Part shown: one piece after another, positions 13,287 through 21,963 of the stretch | Numbering within the stretch: position 1 is the stretch's first letter | Layout of the letters: every line of letters starts with the position of its first letter | From: an uncultured Spirochaetales bacterium | GTDB lineage: Bacteria > Spirochaetota > Spirochaetia > Sphaerochaetales > Sphaerochaetaceae | Length of the DNA: 58,295 nt | Direction of reading: 5' to 3' | Assembly (NCBI GenBank): GCA_949285145.1 | Contig: CASDXQ010000039.1 | Span: 1-58,295 of the forward strand | Notes under the pieces: generated by a model | Database searches by the model: none | What the model saw: the letters and a program-made list of their open reading frames with translations, nothing else | Told to the model about the DNA's origin: nothing | Position numbers and translations under genes: made by a program

Positions 13287-13315
13287 CTGCTGCATGAAAG
13301 CGGCAGCAGCTTTTA
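13287..13315 (+). terminator. terminator of the amino acid ABC operon
   Basis: CTGCTGC (13287-13293) pairs with GCAGCAG (13303-13309) across a 9-nt loop, followed by CTTTTA. It lies against the 3' end of the convergent AAA-DUF4143 gene and marks the left edge of the accessory island. Confidence 0.7.
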
Positions 13316-14599
13316 CGGTTTCAATGCAGTCAGAGGAATGACATATACACCATCTTTCCTGCGGTACGCGGCATTTGAGAGGCCACATATCACAGCGAGG
13401 AATGCAGGTGCGTTTTCAGCATTGTCTTCTCTGATTTTCCTTTCTGTTTTCAGCAGATTCTCAGCGGCTTTATCAATCTGTGATGCACCAAGTTTGATTT
13501 CAAAAGCTCCCCAGCGCCCGTCTTCAAGTTCAAGCACAGCATCTATTTCCCTGTTTGAATAATCCTGATAATGGTAAAGATTTCCATTCAGGGAGCGGGC
13601 GTATATGTCAAGATCATGCTCAGCCAGTGATTCAAACAGAAATCCGAACGTGTTCAGATCTCCAATAAGCTTTTCAGGTGTCAGCGATAATAAGGCGCAT
13701 ACAAGAGATGGATCTGTCAGGTGTCTTTTGGGTGCCTGTTTAAGCCGTTTCTTTGAACGCGCAGAAAATGTAAAGGCATTCTGATCTTCTATGAGAAAAC
13801 TACGCTTAAGAATTTCAAGATACTCATTGACAGTTTCCTGCGTGATGTCCATATCTGTTGCAATACTGATATCTGTTCTCAGTTTTGAAACAGACGCGGT
13901 GGCGGACTCATTTCTCGCAAGAGATTCAAGGAGGAATCTCATTTTCCTTCCATCCCGGAAAGAACGGTTATCATCTATCCTTGGAAGATCTTCTTCCAGA
14001 AAACTTGAAACGTAATCTCTGGCATTCTGCAGTGCAACGTGCTCTCCGGCATTCAGAATTCCAGGCCAGCCGCCGCGTGTTATCAGCATTGCGATTTCCC
14101 TTATATCAATCTCACCTGTCATTGCATCGGAAAAATTACCATCAAAAAGATCTTTTACAGATACTTTTCCAGTTGAATTTCCGGTTTCAAACAGACTCAT
14201 GCTGCGCATTCTGAGTTTTGTTATCCGTCCTGTGCCGCTGTGCATTATACCTTTGATGCGCGGTGTAGAGGATCCTGTGAGAATGAACTGTCCGTATTCT
14301 CCTCTTGCATCGACTTCCATCCTGACTGCATCCCATATTCCGGGAGCCTCCTGCCATTCATCGATCAGGTGATGTGTTTCACCTTCAAGTGCAAGCATGG
14401 GATTTTCTCTTGCAAGCATTCTGTTGCTGAAGTTGCCGGCAGGAGAACCGACCAGAAATGAACTTTGAGCCTGCTCCTGACATGACCATGTCTTACCGCA
14501 CCATTTGGGGCCTTCGACACATACGGCACCCTTCCAGCTAAGACGGTCTTTCAGCTGTGCATCAATCAGTCTTGGCATATAGTTCTTATTTTTTTCCAT
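13313..14599 (-). CDS. AAA ATPase with C-terminal DUF4143 (copy 1)
   Basis: An ATP-binding protein of 428 aa with an N-terminal P-loop GPKWCGKT near residues 30-37. An arginine-finger-type block follows (QFILTGSSTPRIKGIMHSG), and the C-terminal DUF4143 nuclease-like region includes REIDAVLELEDGRWGAFEIKLG near 365-386, which resembles a PD-(D/E)XK core (D..E-K). Function is unknown. Relatives are common as solitary accessory genes in gut bacteria. It is transcribed away from a second family member at 15088. No clear ribosome site precedes ATG 14599. A perfect 11-bp inverted repeat lies 42 bp upstream. Confidence 0.85.
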   Translation of the reverse strand: MEKNKNYMPRLIDAQLKDRLSWKGAVCVEGPKWCGKTWSCQEQAQSSFLVGSPAGNFSNRMLARENPMLALEGETHHLIDEWQEAPGIWDAVRMEVDARGEYGQFILTGSSTPRIKGIMHSGTGRITKLRMRSMSLFETGNSTGKVSVKDLFDGNFSDAMTGEIDIREIAMLITRGGWPGILNAGEHVALQNARDYVSSFLEEDLPRIDDNRSFRDGRKMRFLLESLARNESATASVSKLRTDISIATDMDITQETVNEYLEILKRSFLIEDQNAFTFSARSKKRLKQAPKRHLTDPSLVCALLSLTPEKLIGDLNTFGFLFESLAEHDLDIYARSLNGNLYHYQDYSNREIDAVLELEDGRWGAFEIKLGASQIDKAAENLLKTERKIREDNAENAPAFLAVICGLSNAAYRRKDGVYVIPLTALKP

Positions 14600-14640
14600 A
14601 GAGATATATTACTGTCAAATTGGCTGTAAAACAAGGCATC

Positions 14641-14679
14641 ATGTAAAATTTTATATTTCCATCATGAGAAATTTTACAT
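14641..14679. repeat. inverted repeat upstream of AAA-DUF4143 copy 1
   Basis: ATGTAAAATTT (14641-14651) and AAATTTTACAT (14669-14679) are perfect 11-bp arms around 17 bp. The repeat is 42 bp upstream of the leftward gene's start, a plausible operator for self-regulation. Confidence 0.6.
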
Positions 14680-14715
14680 TATCATCATGAAAAAATCTGA
14701 ATCACTGCTTTGGTT

Positions 14716-14871
14716 GTGAGCGATGACAGCTGGTACATCAACAGACTGCCATTTGTTAATACGGCAGACATCATTTTCAATGGTCAGGCTTATGAACTTA
14801 ATATGCTATTGTGTGCAAACATATTCATTTTGAATAAGAATGGAAAAATTGTACTTACAATCAGGTACTGA
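14716..14871 (+). CDS. 51-aa reading frame, possibly a gene fragment
   Basis: A GTG-started frame encodes a peptide beginning VSDDSWYINRLPF and ending LNKNGKIVLTIRY. Its composition is protein-like but I recognise no family, and no convincing ribosome site precedes it. It may be the remains of a gene lost from the island, or chance. Confidence 0.2.
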   Translation: MSDDSWYINRLPFVNTADIIFNGQAYELNMLLCANIFILNKNGKIVLTIRY

Positions 14872-15028
14872 GGCCTTGCAGAAGGATGAATGATCATTAG
14901 CAATCTATTTTTTAAAGAAGAAGCTGTTATATATTTTTGCACGGTTTCTTGAAAATGAGAATGATATGCCGCTGTGCTGAAATCAACATCATGGAAATGG
15001 TCTGGGCACATGTCTTTATTTTCATGAT

Positions 15029-15068
15029 TTTACGGAGATTTGGAATTATAGGTAGAAATCTCCGTAAA
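15029..15068. repeat. inverted repeat upstream of AAA-DUF4143 copy 2
   Basis: TTTACGGAGATTT (15029-15041) and AAATCTCCGTAAA (15056-15068) are perfect 13-bp arms around 14 bp. The right arm ends 19 bp before the start codon at 15088. This is too long and symmetrical to be chance and is well placed for an operator over the promoter. Confidence 0.7.
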
Positions 15069-15087
15069 GTTGTGATATTCTTTGTGC

Positions 15088-16275
15088 ATGATCAAACGGA
15101 TGATAGAACAGCAGATAACCCAGTCAATGAAAGATTTTCCTTCTGTCACTATATATGGCCCCCGCCAGTGCGGAAAGACAACAACTGTAAGAAATCTTTT
15201 TCCTGATTTCAGCTATGCGAATCTGGAAGATATGAATGTACGACGCCTTGCTGTTGATGATCCCGTCGGTTTTTTCGCCCGGTTCCCGGAGCCTGTCATA
15301 ATCGATGAGATCCAGCGTGTGCCTGAACTGCTGTCCGCAGTTCAGGTCAGAATTGATGGAAACGGGAAAAAAGGGCAGTACATTTTCACCGGCAGCCAGC
15401 AGATAGCATTGAAAGCTGCTGTTGCCCAGTCTCTTGCCGGAAGAACCGCAATACTCAACATGCTGCCTCTTTCTCTCAGGGAACTTGAAAACGAAGGAGT
15501 CAGACTTGACAGGGATATCCAGCTTCTTGCCGGGAATATGCCGTATCTGTTTGCGAATGCTGGAATTTCTCCTTCCGAATATTACAAAAGCTATATCGAG
15601 ACTTATCTTGAAAGAGATATAGCCATGCAGAATCAGTTACATGACATGGCAGCATTTGAGAGAATGCTGCGCCTGCTTGCTGCCAGAACAGGGCAGTTGC
15701 TTAACGAGTCCTCTCTGGCTTCTGATACGGGAATAAGCACAAAGACACTTAAAGGATGGCTTTCCATACTTGAATCCACCCATATCATTTACATTCTGAA
15801 GCCATGGTATTCATCAAGGACAAGTCAGGAAGTGAAGACTCCGAAAATCTATTTCTGTGATACCGGAATAGCCTCTTATCTGCTTGGCATTGAGACTCCG
15901 GCCCAGATGAACCGTGATCCTCTCATGGGACAGCTTTTTGAGAATCTGGCAGTTATGGAGGCTTTGAAGGCTGAGTATGACAACAACATCATTGACAGTC
16001 TGTTTTTCTTCCGCAACAGCAATGGTGTCGAAGTCGATCTCATACATAAGAGGCCTGAAGGAATGAATCTGTTTAAAGTGAAATCCTCAATGAGCATCAG
16101 CAAGGATTTTCTCAAGGGAATCAGTTTTTACAGAAACAAATACAGTGCTGCATCCAGCAATGTCATATATGCGGGTGAAAACTGTCCTGAATATCTGGGA
16201 AGCGGCTTTGTCAATTTCCATGACATTTATGATCTTTTTGTGCCCAAAACGGAGAAGTTCAGGCTGAATATCTGA
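15088..16275 (+). CDS. AAA ATPase with C-terminal DUF4143 (copy 2)
   Basis: A 395-aa protein with Walker A YGPRQCGKTTT near residues 24-34, Walker B-like EPVIIDEIQRVPELL, sensor block GQYIFTGSQQIALK and AGRTAILNMLPLSLREL. This is the best-known subtype of the AAA-DUF4143 family. The C-terminal DUF4143 region includes KIYFCDTGIASYLLG and FFFRNSNGVEVDLI, again with a PD-(D/E)XK look. ATG 15088 is chosen over a TTG two codons upstream. It is divergent from copy 1 and only distantly similar to it. The molecular role is unknown. Confidence 0.85.
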   Translation: MIKRMIEQQITQSMKDFPSVTIYGPRQCGKTTTVRNLFPDFSYANLEDMNVRRLAVDDPVGFFARFPEPVIIDEIQRVPELLSAVQVRIDGNGKKGQYIFTGSQQIALKAAVAQSLAGRTAILNMLPLSLRELENEGVRLDRDIQLLAGNMPYLFANAGISPSEYYKSYIETYLERDIAMQNQLHDMAAFERMLRLLAARTGQLLNESSLASDTGISTKTLKGWLSILESTHIIYILKPWYSSRTSQEVKTPKIYFCDTGIASYLLGIETPAQMNRDPLMGQLFENLAVMEALKAEYDNNIIDSLFFFRNSNGVEVDLIHKRPEGMNLFKVKSSMSISKDFLKGISFYRNKYSAASSNVIYAGENCPEYLGSGFVNFHDIYDLFVPKTEKFRLNI

Positions 16276-16307: not shown

Positions 16308-16348
16308 GTTATGATTTGCTCAGTAAAATCCGTTTGGAGGGTAGTTCT

Positions 16349-18005
16349 TTGCAAGACCGATACGAAAAACTTCTTGATTCCCTGCTGGCAATGTCTGATG
16401 AGACAGAAGTAGTTGAATTCAAGAAGGCCAGTGATCATTTTGATTATGACAAGACAGGAGAGTATTATTCAGCATTGAGCAATGAAGCGAATTTGCGCGG
16501 CTTGAATGTGGCTGGCTAGTATTCGGTATTGACAACAAAACACATGCAGCTATCGGGATAGCTTTCTTGAAAGATATCAGAAAACAGAATGAACTCAAAA
16601 AGAATCTTGGTGAACACCTGAGTATGAATATGAACCTTCATGACATTATTGAGGTTAGCAAAGATGGAAAAAGAGTTGTAATGCTTAAGATACCGGCGGC
16701 GCCTGCCGGTATCCCCGTGGCATATAAAAGAGCCTGCTACGGACGTGACGGGGAGTCTCTTGTGCCACTTTCACTGGATAAGATTGAAAGGATAAGAAGT
16801 CAGAAAAAAGAAGACTGGAGTGCCGGAATTGTGGATGCTGCATCTTTTGATGATCTTGATCCTGTTGCAATTGCGGCTGCCCGTGAAGGATACAGACGAA
16901 GATATCCAAACAGGGCAGAAGAACTTAACGGCTGGGACGACAGGACGTTCCTCAACAAAGCAAAGCTTACAATCAAAGGCAGGATTACGAAGACTGCACT
17001 GCTTCTGCTTGGAAGAGATGAGGCTTCAGTGCTCATTGACAGCAGGATTGATCCCAAGATCAGACTGCTGATCAAGGATGAAAGAGGTGATACAACAGAT
17101 TACTGTATCTGTACGACGCCTTTTATCCTTTCAATCGAAACTATCGCAAACAAAGTGCCAAATTCGACATATCAGTATCTGAGGGATAATTCCCTGATTG
17201 CAGAAACTGTGACCAAGTTTGATCCATTCATCATAAGAGAGGCTCTGTGCAACTGCATCGGACATCAGGATTACCTGGCCGGATGGCGGATTGACATTAT
17301 TGCCAGAGGTGACCGTCTCACTTTGGTCAATGCAGGATCATTTATTCCAGAAAGTGTGGAAAAGGTTGTCATTCAGGATGCTCCGGAGCCTGATTACCGG
17401 AATAAATTTCTTGTTGAGGCTATGACGAATATAGGTCTTGTCGAGACGGTTGGGGGAGGTATACGTAAGATGTTCGCAATCCAGCAGAATAAAGGATTCC
17501 CTCTGCCTGATTACAATCTGTCTGATAATAAGGTGGAAGTTGTCATAACGGGAAAAGTGGTTGACAAAGACTTTGCAGATATCCTCATGAGAAATACAGA
17601 CCTTCCTATTGAGGATTCCTCCTTCTTGATAAAGTCTCAAAGAAAAAACGTCTGTCTAAAGACGAGGCAGACCGGCTGAGAAAGAAAAAGCTGGTGGAAG
17701 GCCGCTATCCAAATCTGTTTATTTCAAAGAATGTTGCTTCCGTGCTTGGGAAGAAGGTTGAATACTCATTGCAGAAAGGTCTGGAAAATGAGAGTTGTAC
17801 CAATATGATTCTTGAATCTATCAAGGTGCATAAATCGTTGACTCGAAAAGAAATTGAAAAGCTTGTTGCCGGTGTGCTTTCTTCCAATATGACAGAAACA
17901 CAAAAGCGTAATCGAATTGATTATATTTTAAAGCAGATGCGGGAAACTGGACTGATTGTCAATGAGAAGAGAGGCCAGATATCTTTATGGAAATTAAACC
18001 AATAA
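16349..18005 (+). pseudogene. AlbA_2 (Schlafen-like) ATP-binding regulator, two frameshifts
   Basis: One ancestral gene is spread over three frames. A TTG start at 16349, 8 nt after GGAGG, opens the AlbA_2 domain (DETEVVEFKKAS, LSNEANLRG). A one-base loss near 16500-16504 shifts the frame; the other frame continues with ECGWLVFGIDNKTHAAIGI and runs to 17679, through a region with YKRACYGRDGESLVPL and EALCNCIGHQDY (RecG/HATPase-C like). A second shift near 17620-17635 moves to the frame reading LLDKVSKKKRLSKDEADRL and a C-terminal winged-helix tail ending at 18005. The family is a putative transcriptional regulator or helicase-like accessory protein. Both shifts argue for decay, unless there are assembly errors. 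Confidence 0.8.
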
Positions 18006-18102: not shown

Positions 18103-19116
18103 TTACCTGGTTTTTCGATACTTCTGCTTGCTGCTGTTAGGCTTATCTGGGATTGTTCGCTCTATGAGATTTGCTTCAAGTGCCGGGTCAAGATAGTTTT
18201 TGCGGAATGTAGGACGATGGGAAAGTCCCAATCGCTTCATGATTTCAGATGCCGGAAGAGCCTCATCTCCAATGGCCGTCAGCAACCTTCGGACGGGGCC
18301 ATCAACTTGGTCGGTATCTTGGTCGCTGACTTGATCGGTGATGTTTCCGGCAACAGACATTTCCTTCAGGCTGTCCCGTATGATTTCAAGCATCAGTTCG
18401 ACGAAACAGGAACTGTCAGCCAGTGAATCCGCCTTATTGAGCGCATCATAGTATTCTTTCTGCCGGGACTGGATTAGATCTTCAATGGGAAGCCAGAAGA
18501 ACAGATCTTTCCAGTTTCCAAGAAGAAGAGTATGCCACATCCTTCCCATCCTGCCGTTACCGTCAGCAAATGGATGGATGAATTCGAACTCATAGTGGAA
18601 AACAGAGCTTTTGATCAGTGGATGGAGTCTGGACTTCTTGTACCATGCAATGAGATCTCTGATCTGTCCAGGCACAAACTCTGCCGGAGGCGCCATATGT
18701 ATGACCTTTTGACCATTGAATACCCCAACGCCACGGGTGCGGAACTTTCCATTCTCTGGAATTAGGCCGGCCATCATCAGCTCATGGGCTTTCAGCAAGT
18801 CATGAACAGAAAGAGGATCAAGTTCCAGCATGAGCTCGTATGCCTCATATGCGTTCCTGACCTCTCTGATCTCATTCGGGTTCCCGAGGACGCGTTTCCC
18901 ATCGATAATAGCAGTCACCTGATCTATAGTGAGCGTGTTGTTCTCGATTGCGAGGGATGAGTGGATAGTGCGGATACGGTTCTTCCGCCTCAGGTGTGGT
19001 GTGACATGACCTTCCTGCATGACGGAGATTCTTCCGATCTCCTCACTGATTTCAGAGACAAGGACGGTCATCTCATCTGTAATTGTCAATGGTGGTTTAT
19101 ATGCATTCATAGCCAT
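18103..19116 (-). CDS. Fic family protein (class II, AMPylator type)
   Basis: A 337-aa Fic protein. The catalytic motif HPFADGNGRMGR is at residues 181-192 and fits the canonical HPFx(D/E)GNGRxxR. The N-terminal inhibitory helix SSLAIEN (about 53-59) matches the (S/T)xxxE(G/N) motif of class II Fic enzymes, so activity is self-inhibited. The C-terminus has a DQVSDQDTDQVDG linker and a winged-helix domain. It is expected to transfer AMP to target hydroxyls. ATG 19116 is preferred to a TTG at 19143. The gene appears intact, unlike several neighbours. Confidence 0.9.
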   Translation of the reverse strand: MAMNAYKPPLTITDEMTVLVSEISEEIGRISVMQEGHVTPHLRRKNRIRTIHSSLAIENNTLTIDQVTAIIDGKRVLGNPNEIREVRNAYEAYELMLELDPLSVHDLLKAHELMMAGLIPENGKFRTRGVGVFNGQKVIHMAPPAEFVPGQIRDLIAWYKKSRLHPLIKSSVFHYEFEFIHPFADGNGRMGRMWHTLLLGNWKDLFFWLPIEDLIQSRQKEYYDALNKADSLADSSCFVELMLEIIRDSLKEMSVAGNITDQVSDQDTDQVDGPVRRLLTAIGDEALPASEIMKRLGLSHRPTFRKNYLDPALEANLIERTIPDKPNSSKQKYRKTR

Positions 19117-19207
19117 TTTCTCGCTCTTGCAACCGTGGCACAACAGACATCATTTTTCTCTGCGATATACTGATACGTGGCAGTTGGAACACGGTGTATG
19201 ATGTTCT

Positions 19208-19285
19208 TCACTTTCTTCTGAACAAGTACTGTTTGGAAAAAAGGACTGCGAGGATGAGAACATTCGTGTCAATCAGTATTCTCAC
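19208..19285 (-). pseudogene. PIN-domain toxin, N-terminal stub only
   Basis: A GTG start at 19285 overlaps the antitoxin stop (GTGA), the usual toxin-antitoxin coupling. The frame reads VRILIDTNVLILAVLF, the first strand of a PIN ribonuclease with its first catalytic Asp, then meets TGA after 25 codons. The remaining 100 or so residues and the other acidic residues are missing. The toxin is therefore inactive. Confidence 0.7.
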
Positions 19286-19551
19286 TTACTCTCAGCCTCG
19301 TTTCTCATTTCGGAGATGTGGCTGATCACTTCTTCATCTGTTTTTAGTCCGGCTTTTTTTGCTTCTCCCTTCATCTCCTGCTGAAGCATCTGCATTGCAT
19401 AGACTGCGGAATTAACAATACGGACTGTATTTCCTTCAACAATGAATGAAACCCTGTCTCCATTGGAAATTCCGAGAATGTCTCTTACATCCTTTGGTAT
19501 AGTAATCTGGCCCTTAGACATCACTTTTGCATTATCAATGAAAGCTGTCAT
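19282..19551 (-). CDS. AbrB/MazE-type antitoxin
   Basis: An 89-aa protein with an N-terminal swapped-hairpin DNA-binding domain (VMSKGQITIPKDVRDILGI, then GDRVSFIVEGNTVRIVN) and a helical C-terminal tail that would bind the toxin. ATG 19551 follows AGAGG; a TTG two codons upstream is possible. Its partner toxin is only a stub (19208-19285), so it is an orphan antitoxin that may persist as a DNA-binding regulator. A 10-bp inverted repeat covers its promoter, in line with autorepression. Confidence 0.85.
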   Translation of the reverse strand: MTAFIDNAKVMSKGQITIPKDVRDILGISNGDRVSFIVEGNTVRIVNSAVYAMQMLQQEMKGEAKKAGLKTDEEVISHISEMRNEAESK

Positions 19552-19575
19552 CAGCAATTACCTCTATAAAATAGG

Positions 19576-19627: not shown

Positions 19628-19735
19628 TATTCCGAATTCAAGGATGAAGTCTTTGATGTGGGAGATAATCTGCTTCTTGAGATCTTTTTCTTGCATGAAG
19701 CTCCCTAAAGGATGAGGAATGAATTCTGATACATC
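19607..19735 (-). pseudogene. fragment resembling YhcG (DUF1016) nuclease
   Basis: One minus-strand frame from about 19735 reads through MQEKDLKKQIISHIKDFILEFG and stops at 19607. It resembles the block E-K-D-L-x(n)-I-x-H-I-x-K-F-L-L-E-L-G that precedes the nuclease core of YhcG/DUF1016 proteins. No start or downstream catalytic part remains. The antitoxin promoter now occupies its end. The match is by eye and short. Confidence 0.4.
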
Positions 19736-19794
19736 TTTGCATCACAAATGGTGTCTGTATCACTGTAGTAGAGTCTATTGAAACGGAGGTGAGC

Positions 19795-20343
19795 ATGACA
19801 GTTGGATATATCAGTGTCAGCACCACTGACAAGAATCCTGCAAGATAGGAAGAAGCTCTTAGAAAACACGGAGTGGAACGTGTCTTCGAAGAAAAGATCT
19901 CAGGCAAGGATATGAACCGCCCTAAGCTGAATGAGCTTTTGGATTTTGTGCGTGAAGGTGACATCGTAATCGTTGAGTCTTATTCCCGTCTTGCCAGATC
20001 TACAAAATATCGCCTCTTCATCATCGACAAGCTTCAGGAAAAGAAGGTATCCTTCATTCTCTCTGAAGGAGAACAGCGATACGACCACACCGTAAAGAAA
20101 GCCAATGCCTACAACCTTCGCTGGTCTTTCCTGTTTGGGCGGGAGCATATACTTCAGCGTTAGGCTGAGGGCATAGCAATTGCAAAAGCATATGGCAAGT
20201 ACAAAGGGCGCAAGCCTATTAGCAAATCAGCCGACTGGAATTATGTCATAAGGCTTTATAGAGCTAAGGAGATAACCTCGACCCAGGCAAAGAGGCGATT
20301 AGGCTTGAGCCATGCTACGTTCTACAGGATGCTTAAAGGGTAG
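19795..20343 (+). pseudogene. serine recombinase (resolvase/invertase), decayed
   Basis: ATG 19795 follows GGAGG and starts MTVGYISVSTTDKN, with the catalytic Ser of the VST motif. TAG at 19846 interrupts it where a Gln is expected. The frame continues with EEALRKHGVERVFEEKISGKDMNRPKL and VIVESYSRLARS (the R-S motif). Two opposite frameshifts enclose a stretch that reads SLKENSDTTTP and FAGLS in another frame, and a second TAG occurs at 20161, again where Gln is expected (QR-stop-AEGIAIAK). The C-terminal helix-turn-helix (SHATFYRMLKG) is intact to TAG 20341. It is a Tn3-resolvase-like gene, inactive. Confidence 0.8.
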
Positions 20344-20345
20344 CG

Positions 20346-21695
20346 CTATCTGACAATGCGCTTGTCATAGAGAGAGCGGAGAATCTCCATATCGGATGCC
20401 CAACACCTGACAGCCTGGCTCATGTCCCTGTTGGTAACAGAACCGTTGATGTCAATGAAAGTGTTCAGATAACTGAGAATTCGATGGTATGACACGCCCC
20501 GGACATTCAACGCAATCAGAATCCTTATCCTTTGCTCTTGAGTGAGGCAGGATTGCTGGTTCACTTCATATCCTGCCTTTTTCAGAACGGACTCGGCAGC
20601 CCACATATCAGTAGTGGTTTTGTAGCCAAACTTTTTCCCATCGTAAAGGAAACAGTTGAAGACCTGATATTGGTTGTCCTTGATTAGATTGTAGATTCCG
20701 TAGAATTCATTAGTGTACATGAAGACTTTCTTGCACTGTTTGCAGTAGTAAGCTTTCAGATTCTTGGTAAATGGAGTGGAACCATAGACGTCCTTAATCA
20801 GAACTTCAAGAGTAACTCCTACCATCTGATGTCCTTTCTTAAGGCACTTGAATGTGTTCTCGACAATGATGATTGATGACAGCTGACAATAGATTCTGTC
20901 TCCTTTATTGATGACTTCGCTTGAAGGAACCATTTTGCCAGGCGGCTTAGGAAATGTCGGTATTTGCTGTTTGACTCCCGAAGTTTTCTGTTCTGGCTGA
21001 GGGCCTCCAAACAGAATGTGATTCACCTCCGCATCCCGTTTGAAGTGTTCCAGAAAGATGAAATAGTCTCCGATTGCTGTGAGGTAGCTGTTACAGACAT
21101 CCTGTACGAGAAATTTGAAATGTCTTCTCGGAATACCTGCTTCATAAATCAGATTCAGGATTTTCCTGCATTGCGGAAGCTTGGTCGTTGCGTCCAGCAA
21201 TTTCCTGAATGGATAGTTCGGCCCTGTATGATCAATACTGTTGTAAAGAGGAACATCGTTTATCGACTTCATGTATACGGAGCTACCGTTTCGTCTGTCT
21301 TTGATTTTCAAGACAATGGAACCATCTTTATCAAGGCGTGCAAACGTAACTCGTAGTTTGGCATTTGATTTTCCCTTTAACGTAAATTCGTATGCTGGGC
21401 TTGAGATTTCCGGGTCACTGTAAATTTCAAGTGCAGCTTCTAGGTGCTGAAGGTAAATTGTGTTGAGCTTATCAATTGGAAGGCTGGAATATTTTCTTCG
21501 GACTCCAGCTCGAATTACTTCTATCCGGTCAGGGGATACTTGCTGAATGTCCGACTTGTTTACCTTTTCCCTTGGTGAAACGCTTATGACAGAACCATCT
21601 TTCTTTACTAACGTGAAACCAGAGTTCTTGATTGCATCCACAGTAATATTTCGTGAACGTGATCGGTAATGATGACGCTGTTGTTTCTTTGCCAT
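20346..21695 (-). CDS. CxxC protein of unknown function (449 aa)
   Basis: I do not recognise a named family. The protein has a basic start (MAKKQQRHHYRSRSRN), a middle region without clear motifs, and a probable zinc site: Cys-Leu-Lys-Lys-Gly-His at about residues 284-289 and YYCKQCKKVFMYTNEF at about 314-329. The C-terminal 70 residues (QRIRILIALNVRGVSYHRIL and a Trp-Ala-Ser-Asp block) look like a small helical domain. Similar architectures occur as uncharacterised accessory genes in gut Firmicutes, from memory only. ATG 21695 follows AGGAG. It is intact and has its own promoter. Base use is AT-richer than in the flanking core genes. Confidence 0.7.
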   Translation of the reverse strand: MAKKQQRHHYRSRSRNITVDAIKNSGFTLVKKDGSVISVSPREKVNKSDIQQVSPDRIEVIRAGVRRKYSSLPIDKLNTIYLQHLEAALEIYSDPEISSPAYEFTLKGKSNAKLRVTFARLDKDGSIVLKIKDRRNGSSVYMKSINDVPLYNSIDHTGPNYPFRKLLDATTKLPQCRKILNLIYEAGIPRRHFKFLVQDVCNSYLTAIGDYFIFLEHFKRDAEVNHILFGGPQPEQKTSGVKQQIPTFPKPPGKMVPSSEVINKGDRIYCQLSSIIIVENTFKCLKKGHQMVGVTLEVLIKDVYGSTPFTKNLKAYYCKQCKKVFMYTNEFYGIYNLIKDNQYQVFNCFLYDGKKFGYKTTTDMWAAESVLKKAGYEVNQQSCLTQEQRIRILIALNVRGVSYHRILSYLNTFIDINGSVTNRDMSQAVRCWASDMEILRSLYDKRIVR

Positions 21696-21717
21696 CTCTA
21701 TTCTCCTGATAACAAGA

Positions 21718-21747
21718 ATTATACCCTTTGGCCACTTCTGACTTCAA
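21718..21747 (-). promoter_or_regulatory. promoter of the CxxC protein gene
   Basis: On the minus strand, TTGAAG (21742-21747), 18 bp and a perfect TATAAT (21718-21723) lie about 22 bp before the start codon. Confidence 0.6.
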
Positions 21748-21893
21748 TTCTGTTATTATGAGAGAAGTGTCATAACATGAGATATATGGGAAAAGAAAGG
21801 CGACTTTACACATGATTGCATAGCACTTCCATAGCTATCTGCATTTGTCATAGAGGTACTAGAAGCATCAGATTTTGTTGAAGTTGTTTGGTA

Positions 21894-21916
21894 ATTACTG
21901 ACGCGGATTACTGACG
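21894..21916. repeat. short direct repeat near the tRNA
   Basis: ATTACTGACG occurs at 21894-21903 and 21907-21916, 13 bp apart, in the stretch between the CxxC gene and the tRNA terminator. It may be a recombination scar. The rest of 21750-21930 shows nothing recognisable. Confidence 0.35.
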
Positions 21917-21930
21917 GAGTTTTGCCTTGT

Positions 21931-21963
21931 AAATGAAACAACTCCCTGACTTGCAGAGAGTTG
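21931..21963 (-). terminator. tRNA-Ala terminator
   Basis: On the minus strand CAACTCTCTG pairs with CAGGGAGTTG (plus 21939-21963, one G-U pair, 5-nt loop) and is followed by TTTCATTT. It lies 7 bp after the tRNA end. Confidence 0.6.

What the first reader, a model, noticed from the sequence alone, without database searches (positions are those of the whole stretch)
13313..16275. Divergent AAA-DUF4143 pair, each with a private palindrome
Two distantly related AAA-DUF4143 genes face away from each other. Perfect inverted repeats with 11-bp arms (14641-14679) and 13-bp arms (15029-15068) lie next to their starts. The arm sequences differ, so each protein may control itself. The PD-(D/E)XK-like C-terminal region and the accessory setting suggest a defence or selfish module of unknown mechanism.
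Basis: partly seen in the sequence, partly recalled or inferred. Interest (0 to 1): 0.6.

Follow-up and report, generated by a model that had tools for sequence, protein, structure and literature searches.

The report
Nuclease genes with private DNA addresses
Each of these two very common but uncharacterised nuclease genes sits behind its own private DNA recognition site, a tandem array or a palindrome, which travels with the gene and changes with it, so a large family of suspected defence genes now has concrete DNA targets to test.

Summary
The two AAA-DUF4143 genes are real and both match the PADLOC candidate PDC-S01. The 13-bp inverted repeat before gene 2 is real: homologues keep the symmetry while both arms change together, and it overlaps the -35 region and spacer of a mostly leaderless promoter. 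The 11-bp "palindrome" before gene 1 is incidental: it lies inside a 23-bp-period tandem array (14637-14694) and is lost in a 97% identical orthologue that keeps the array. Upstream arrays are general in gene 1's subfamily: 83 of 94 upstream regions in the window's family (lag 23 in 75) and 64 of 78 loci from many bacterial and archaeal lineages (all lag 23). Unit sequences differ between paralogues and covary with the recognition helix. DNA shared between copies at unrelated places is essentially site plus ORF. At three of three loci tested, a sister genome lacks the gene but keeps an array. Best reading: mobile, self-addressed STAND-like AAA+/winged-helix/PD-(D/E)XK proteins that bind their own site and control their own promoter. 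Whether they defend, home or transpose is open. Self-control is inferred, not shown. No report of such arrays turned up in the papers searched; most literature is not held.

The parts
13313..14599 (-). Gene 1: AAA_14 + winged helix/DUF4143 + PD-(D/E)XK nuclease domain, 428 aa
14637..14694 (-). Gene 1's private tandem array, 23-nt period, about 2.5 units (CATGATG-type core), ending 37 nt before ATG; contains the reported 11-bp palindrome
14606..14634 (-). Putative gene 1 promoter, read by eye: -35 TTGTTT (14634-14629), 17-nt spacer, -10 TAATAT (14611-14606), 6 nt before ATG
   Evidence: sequence; inference, not supported as a family-wide pattern for gene 1
15029..15068 (+). Gene 2's private palindrome: 13-bp arms, 14-nt spacer
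15053..15081 (+). Putative gene 2 promoter: -35 TAGAAA (15053-15058, overlapping the right arm), 17-nt spacer, -10 TATTCT (15076-15081), 6 nt before ATG, so probably leaderless
   Evidence: sequence; family pattern
15088..16275 (+). Gene 2: AAA_14 + winged helix/DUF4143 + PD-(D/E)XK domain, 395 aa; residue 330 of the E-x-K motif is K here, E in the 97% identical orthologues L016 and L017

Best explanation
The locus holds two divergent members of one large family (PADLOC candidate PDC-S01): single-gene modules made of a private DNA site and one ORF. The protein is a STAND/Orc-like AAA+ ATPase with a winged helix and a PD-(D/E)XK nuclease domain. Through the winged helix it binds its own site: tandem 23-bp units in gene 1's subfamily (cooperative, side-by-side loading) or a symmetric two-half-site palindrome in gene 2's subfamily. 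Binding at the promoter makes expression self-limiting. Site and protein change specificity together, so many paralogues in one cell do not cross-regulate. The module moves as site plus ORF. Shown by computation: the sites, their spread, symmetry, period, privacy, covariation, promoter overlap (gene 2 type), transfer unit and gene-less arrays. Inferred: binding by the own protein, repression, cooperativity, nuclease activity, and a role against competing phages or mobile elements (about even odds).
For: Arrays: 83 of 94 gene-1-type upstream regions exceed the 99th percentile of shuffles (window counted twice), lag 23 in 75 and 24 in 6; 3' flanks 3 of 33. 64 of 78 named loci, all lag 23; 3' flanks 6 of 74. 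38 other window genes: none above 10.5. Palindromes: 38 of 61 gene-2-type loci above the 99th percentile, 3' flanks 3 of 55; base pairs 13-16 from the centre are complementary in 43, 43, 42 and 44 of 46 loci with two to four pair types each. Promoter: -10 six nt before ATG in 39 of 65, shuffled control 1 of 65. Privacy: in the own genome the gene 2 palindrome occurs once, the gene 1 unit without mismatch only at its own promoter; seven paralogous arrays are 77-97% alike inside, 39-74% between. Covariation: the strongest core pair is E255, first turn of the recognition helix, with unit position 10 (138 arrays; helix region versus rest p 0.0003). Fold. Transfer unit. Gene-less arrays. PDC-S01.
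Against: No binding, expression or cleavage data. Gene-less arrays in sister genomes mean the site is not only a promoter element, unless they are relics. In gene 2's subfamily the covariation test did not single out the winged helix (4 of the top 40 pairs, p 0.55). Gene 1's family shows no common leaderless promoter, so the array-promoter relation there is by eye. 11 of 94 and 14 of 78 gene-1-type upstream regions and 23 of 61 gene-2-type ones lack a significant site. The covariation statistics are only partly corrected for relatedness. Window gene 2 may lack nuclease activity (K at the E of E-x-K).
Confidence: 0.62

Rival explanations
1. Homing or transposition element: the nuclease acts on its array or palindrome in other DNA, so that the site is a landing place or an element end and the module spreads by itself; promoter control is secondary.
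For: Unit of sharing between unrelated locations is site plus ORF, e.g. L258/L259 91.0% from -58 to stop+2, L259/L265 90.0% -67 to +5, L026/L027 87.6% -56 to +3, L040/L042 92.1% -58 to -2. Gene-less arrays in sister genomes at 3 of 3 loci. Sites on both sides of the gene in L250 and L260 (2 of 30) and in L010 and L180 (2 of 83). Empty junction in G630 where G366 has site-gene-site. AAA+ plus PD-(D/E)XK recalls TnsC plus TnsA (recalled).
Against: No fixed target sequence or regular target duplication found. 0 of 27 own-family palindrome loci have a downstream copy. L010's downstream repeat includes a decayed promoter, which fits a tandem copy whose gene was lost. Selection could leave only functional DNA recognisable after ordinary transfer.
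Confidence: 0.2
2. Defence nuclease whose private site is a sensor or self-mark: bound protein is held silent at the array and released or assembled on foreign DNA, for instance iteron-type replication origins.
For: PDC-S01 match; STAND-like fold, as in AVAST5 and resistosomes; viral 23-bp arrays turned up mostly in genes resembling phage replication initiators.
Against: The viral patterns themselves demanded 23-nt spacing; only 1 of 18 GCCAA arrays and 0 of 3 CCGAATG arrays in viral contigs lie beside a relative of these genes; the gene 2 palindrome has 0 exact matches in viral contigs. No antiviral test is reported in the passages read.
Confidence: 0.25
3. The repeats are an RNA hairpin or attenuator in the leader of the mRNA.
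For: Long perfect palindromes with 3-nt centres in some homologues.
Against: In most gene-2-type genes the predicted transcript starts at or near the ATG, downstream of the palindrome; gene 1's site is a direct repeat.
Confidence: 0.03
4. Chance low-complexity repeats in AT-rich intergenic DNA.
For: Intergenic GC is 34%.
Against: Shuffle, 3'-flank and other-gene controls; one fixed period across lineages.
Confidence: 0.01

Closest known systems
PADLOC candidate PDC-S01 (AAA ATPase fused to PD-(D/E)XK; DUF4143)
   Same: Both proteins match its models over most of their length (E 1.8e-61 and 6.8e-92). Described as the fourth most common defence across prokaryotes, with validation pending for most such candidates, in passages read of PMC12988326.
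   Different: The passages read say nothing of upstream arrays or palindromes, their 23-bp period, or the site-plus-ORF unit.
Archaeal AAA+ ATPases SSO1545 and PABY2304 and STAND ATPases (CED-4, NLRs, MalT, AVAST5)
   Same: Best structural matches for the ATPase and winged-helix part. MalT binding of repeated boxes is a recalled analogy.
   Different: Alignment barely covers the C-terminal nuclease domain; no sequence relative among solved structures except two short P-loop matches.
Iteron-binding replication initiators (plasmid Rep, phage O type)
   Same: Tandem repeats of about two helical turns near the gene of the binding protein (recalled for these systems).
   Different: No origin or replicon shown here; a nuclease domain is fused; site sequences are hypervariable.
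Tn7-type TnsA/TnsC
   Same: A PD-(D/E)XK nuclease and an AAA+ ATPase used together in mobility (recalled).
   Different: No DDE transposase in the module and no defined pair of ends seen.

Membership tests
PDC-S01 | Match to PADLOC PDC-S01 profile models | tested here: met
   E 1.8e-61 (gene 1) and 6.8e-92 (gene 2)
PDC-S01 | ATPase fused to a PD-(D/E)XK domain | tested here: met
   window gene 2 has K at the E of E-x-K
PDC-S01 | Antiviral activity | not testable with these tools
   No assay; [quoted passage not shown]
STAND / archaeal AAA+ ATPase | AAA+ core with winged helix of the SSO1545/PABY2304 type | tested here: met
   Foldseek E 3.1e-07, gene 1; Z 15.6, rmsd 3.3, 243 aligned, gene 2
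Self-regulating DNA-binding protein | Conserved symmetric or repeated site at the own promoter | tested here: met
Self-regulating DNA-binding protein | Protein binds the site and changes its own expression | not testable with these tools
   Needs binding and reporter assays
Transposon or homing element | Precise movable unit with sharp ends | tested here: inconclusive
   shared DNA stops near the outer edge of the site and near the stop codon in several pairs; direction of change not resolved
Transposon or homing element | Target-site duplication or fixed target | tested here: inconclusive
   no regular duplication or shared target seen; few junctions
Tn7-type transposon | DDE transposase and TnsB-type ends | not tested
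   No such gene lies in the module; the wider genomes were not searched for one
Iteron plasmid replicon | Repeats act as a replication origin | not testable with these tools
   Needs replication assays

The most novel reading that the evidence does not exclude
A minimal self-addressed mobile unit of about 1.3 kb: one AAA+/winged-helix/PD-(D/E)XK protein and one hypervariable cognate array or palindrome that is both its operator and its landing or excision site. Gene-less arrays are its footprints, and the diversity of addresses is an arms race between copies. This would make one of the most common uncharacterised 'defence' gene families a class of selfish element that competes with other mobile DNA through private DNA addresses.
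Probability: 0.2. Interest if true: 0.9.

Novelty: new variant of a known kind. Interest (0 to 1): 0.7.

Why it matters
PDC-S01 genes are reported among the most common candidate defence genes of bacteria and archaea, without a validated mechanism (PMC12988326, passages). A private DNA site with a fixed 23-bp period, or a palindrome with co-changing arms, gives each gene a predicted ligand. That makes binding, self-control, specificity switching and site-directed cutting testable at once, and more than a hundred natural protein-site pairs are at hand for learning a recognition code (138 arrays).

Tried and rejected
Rejected: gene 1's palindrome as an operator (lost in L046 while the array stays). 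RNA hairpin (promoter lies over the palindrome). Phage genomes as holders of the gene 2 palindrome: 0 exact matches. A downstream copy of the site as a general feature: 0 of 27 own-family palindrome loci, 2 of 30 loci of another family of the class, 2 of 83 array loci close downstream. Winged-helix covariation in gene 2's family: not singled out. A first covariation run for gene 1 mixed registers and was repeated with the GCCAA units rotated by rule. Thirteen listed arrays of ambiguous register were dropped (the two lists differ slightly), leaving 72 each time; instead dropped arrays not at lag 23, scoring under 11, or with short, broken or duplicate proteins, leaving 138. Sequence search of solved structures: no useful relative. 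Families: no NCBIfam or PHROGs match for the two proteins. Paper searches used: DUF4143 (1 paper, listing only), Pfam names (noise), DUF234 (listing), PDC-S01 (3 papers; passages read of two), PADLOC candidates (listing), expansion terms (0), guilt-by-embedding (4, listing), iterons plus nuclease (0), DUF4143 phrases (0). So 'not in print' holds only for these searches of an open-licence library without preprints. The flank of L260 was taken to relatives, but the best were only about 72% alike, too far for a junction.

Full report
What is there. Between an amino-acid transporter operon and an accessory stretch of lower GC, two AAA_14-DUF4143 genes stand back to back at 13313-14599 (-) and 15088-16275 (+). 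The own genome, 2.06 Mb in 61 contigs, has 14 DUF4143 matches. Both window proteins match PADLOC's PDC-S01. Predicted structures (mean pLDDT 92.1 and 92.7) have an AAA+ core, a winged helix and a C-terminal PD-(D/E)XK-type domain (domain reading mine, from the element lists and motifs); the first two parts match archaeal ATPases SSO1545 and PABY2304 and STAND proteins best. In the gene 1 alignment of 92 sequences E323, D353 and E367 are invariant and K369 nearly so; in that of gene 2 (44 sequences) E285, E315, D317 and K332 are invariant and E330 nearly so, with K at 330 in the window's own copy only.

Gene 1's site is an array. Upstream of gene 1 on its own strand lie units of 23 nt, about 2.5 copies, ending 37 nt before the ATG. 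The reported 11-bp palindrome is a by-product: one 97% identical orthologue keeps the 23-nt repeat but loses the palindrome (L046), another keeps both (L047). In the window's family, 83 of 94 gene-1-type upstream stretches exceed the 99th percentile of shuffles (the window is in twice), with lag 23 in 75 and 24 in 6; 3' flanks do so in 3 of 33. Of 80 named loci, whose titles name Firmicutes, Bacteroidota, Actinomycetota, spirochaetes, Verrucomicrobia, proteobacteria and archaea, two were too short; 64 of 78 exceed the limit, all with lag 23, against 6 of 74 3' flanks. Six of the 80 are the same DNA as loci counted. Two Bacteroides plasmids, a Collinsella plasmid and a phage-labelled record show the same layout, 4 of 4 examined.

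Gene 2's site is a palindrome. Down to about 41% protein identity, upstream stretches hold two inverted half-sites. At the best centre 15.2 of 21 positions pair on average, against 11.0 in shuffles; 38 of 61 loci exceed the 99th percentile, 3' flanks 3 of 55. The centre was chosen to maximise pairing in loci and controls alike. In the 46 loci of one spacing class, positions 13 to 16 from the centre are complementary in 43, 43, 42 and 44 loci although the base pair itself differs (for instance GC 26, CG 12, TA 4, AT 1 at position 13). So both halves change together. In a simpler test on the 52 gene-2-type loci, which include more distant relatives, only 20 passed. The -10-like hexamer lies six nt before the ATG in 39 of 65 genes, against 1 of 65 in shuffled controls, and the -35 falls in the right half-site (and sequences): a DNA operator over a mostly leaderless promoter is the plain reading. 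Gene 1's family shows no such common arrangement in the same test; overlap of -35 with the last unit there is by eye in a few members.

The sites are private. Gene 2's palindrome occurs once in the own genome, and in 2 of 296 genomes of the phylum sample, each time beside such a gene. Gene 1's unit occurs without mismatch twice, both in its own array; every other hit has two mismatches. Seven arrays of the own genome are 77 to 97% alike inside and 39 to 74% alike between paralogues, the window's array at most 57% like another. Across 138 arrays the strongest covariation inside the unit's core is with E255 in the first turn of the recognition helix (helix 254-266); the helix-turn-helix region scores above the rest (p 0.0003), and 8 of the top 40 pairs fall in it. 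Earlier smaller runs pointed to neighbouring residues 253 and 254. The same kind of test for gene 2's family did not single out the winged helix.

The unit moves. Among 92 similar pairs listed, many that lie at unrelated places share DNA only from the outer edge of the site to about the stop codon: L258/L259 91.0%, -58 to +2; L259/L265 90.0%, -67 to +5; L026/L027 87.6%, -56 to +3; L040/L042 92.1%, -58 to -2; L276/L278 93.6%, -56 to -15; and, for arrays, L157/L161 85.2%, -131 to -4; L172/L173 83.4%, -124 to +2. Others are the same locus in related genomes and share flanks. In one genome (G366) a gene stands between two copies of its palindrome where a relative (G630) has neither gene nor palindrome; in G502 it stands between direct repeats holding the palindrome.

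Arrays without the gene. Three gene-1-type copies of the own genome were compared with the 16 genomes of the genus, own included. At the L010 locus, G015 has the flanks and one array but no gene; the own copy stands between two array copies. At the L004 locus, G013 and G015 each have three units and no gene. At the L005 locus, G015 has two degenerate units and no gene, while G013 has the gene. Whether the gene left or had not yet come is not settled; at L010 the downstream repeat includes a decayed promoter, which favours loss of a tandem copy.

How it most likely works. The protein binds its own site and limits its own expression; diversified sites insulate paralogues. In the tandem class the 23-bp step would load neighbouring AAA+ units in a regular row; in the palindrome class a dimer would sit over the -35. 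What the nuclease acts on is unknown. A role against phages or other mobile DNA is the common label for the family but is untested in what I read. A homing or transposing life is the boldest reading that the transfer unit and gene-less arrays leave open.

Limits. All is computed; many genomes are draft and unnamed; relatedness is only partly corrected in the covariation tests; the literature library holds open-licence papers only.

Noticed in passing
window 16075-16077: Gene 2 has K at residue 330, the E of the E-x-K nuclease motif, unique among 44 aligned sequences; its two 97% identical orthologues have E. The copy may be nuclease-dead, or the base may be an assembly error.
   Followed up: partly
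window 16316-18005: Three consecutive + strand ORFs (16316-16519, 16567-17679, 17694-18005), the middle one matching a RecG-like ATPase C-terminal family, look like one interrupted gene; this block is absent from the G013 counterpart.
   Followed up: no
window 18103-19557: A Fic-domain gene with an AbrB-like small ORF nearby (the latter by eye), in the same accessory stretch.
   Followed up: no
window 19631-21931: Block with a resolvase-like fragment (by eye) and a 449-aa protein without Pfam match, absent from the G013 counterpart.
   Followed up: no
L283, L285, L287, L295, L296, L298, L299 (viral contigs): Tandem GCCAA repeats at 23-nt spacing inside genes that look like phage replication initiators (by eye), resembling origin iterons; the 23-nt spacing was demanded by the search pattern.
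   Followed up: partly
L027 and L028, about 185 nt before the ATG: What looks like the 3' part of a tRNA gene (by eye) lies before the palindrome-gene unit, and homology between L027 and L028 starts inside it, as if the island uses a tRNA as integration site.
   Followed up: no
L217 upstream: An exact copy of the gene's array unit lies in the stretch 260 to 1200 nt upstream of the gene, beyond the part in which the array was measured.
   Followed up: no
L012 upstream: A more distant DUF4143 gene of the own genome has upstream direct repeats of about 34-36 nt, suggesting other periods in other subfamilies (by eye).
   Followed up: no
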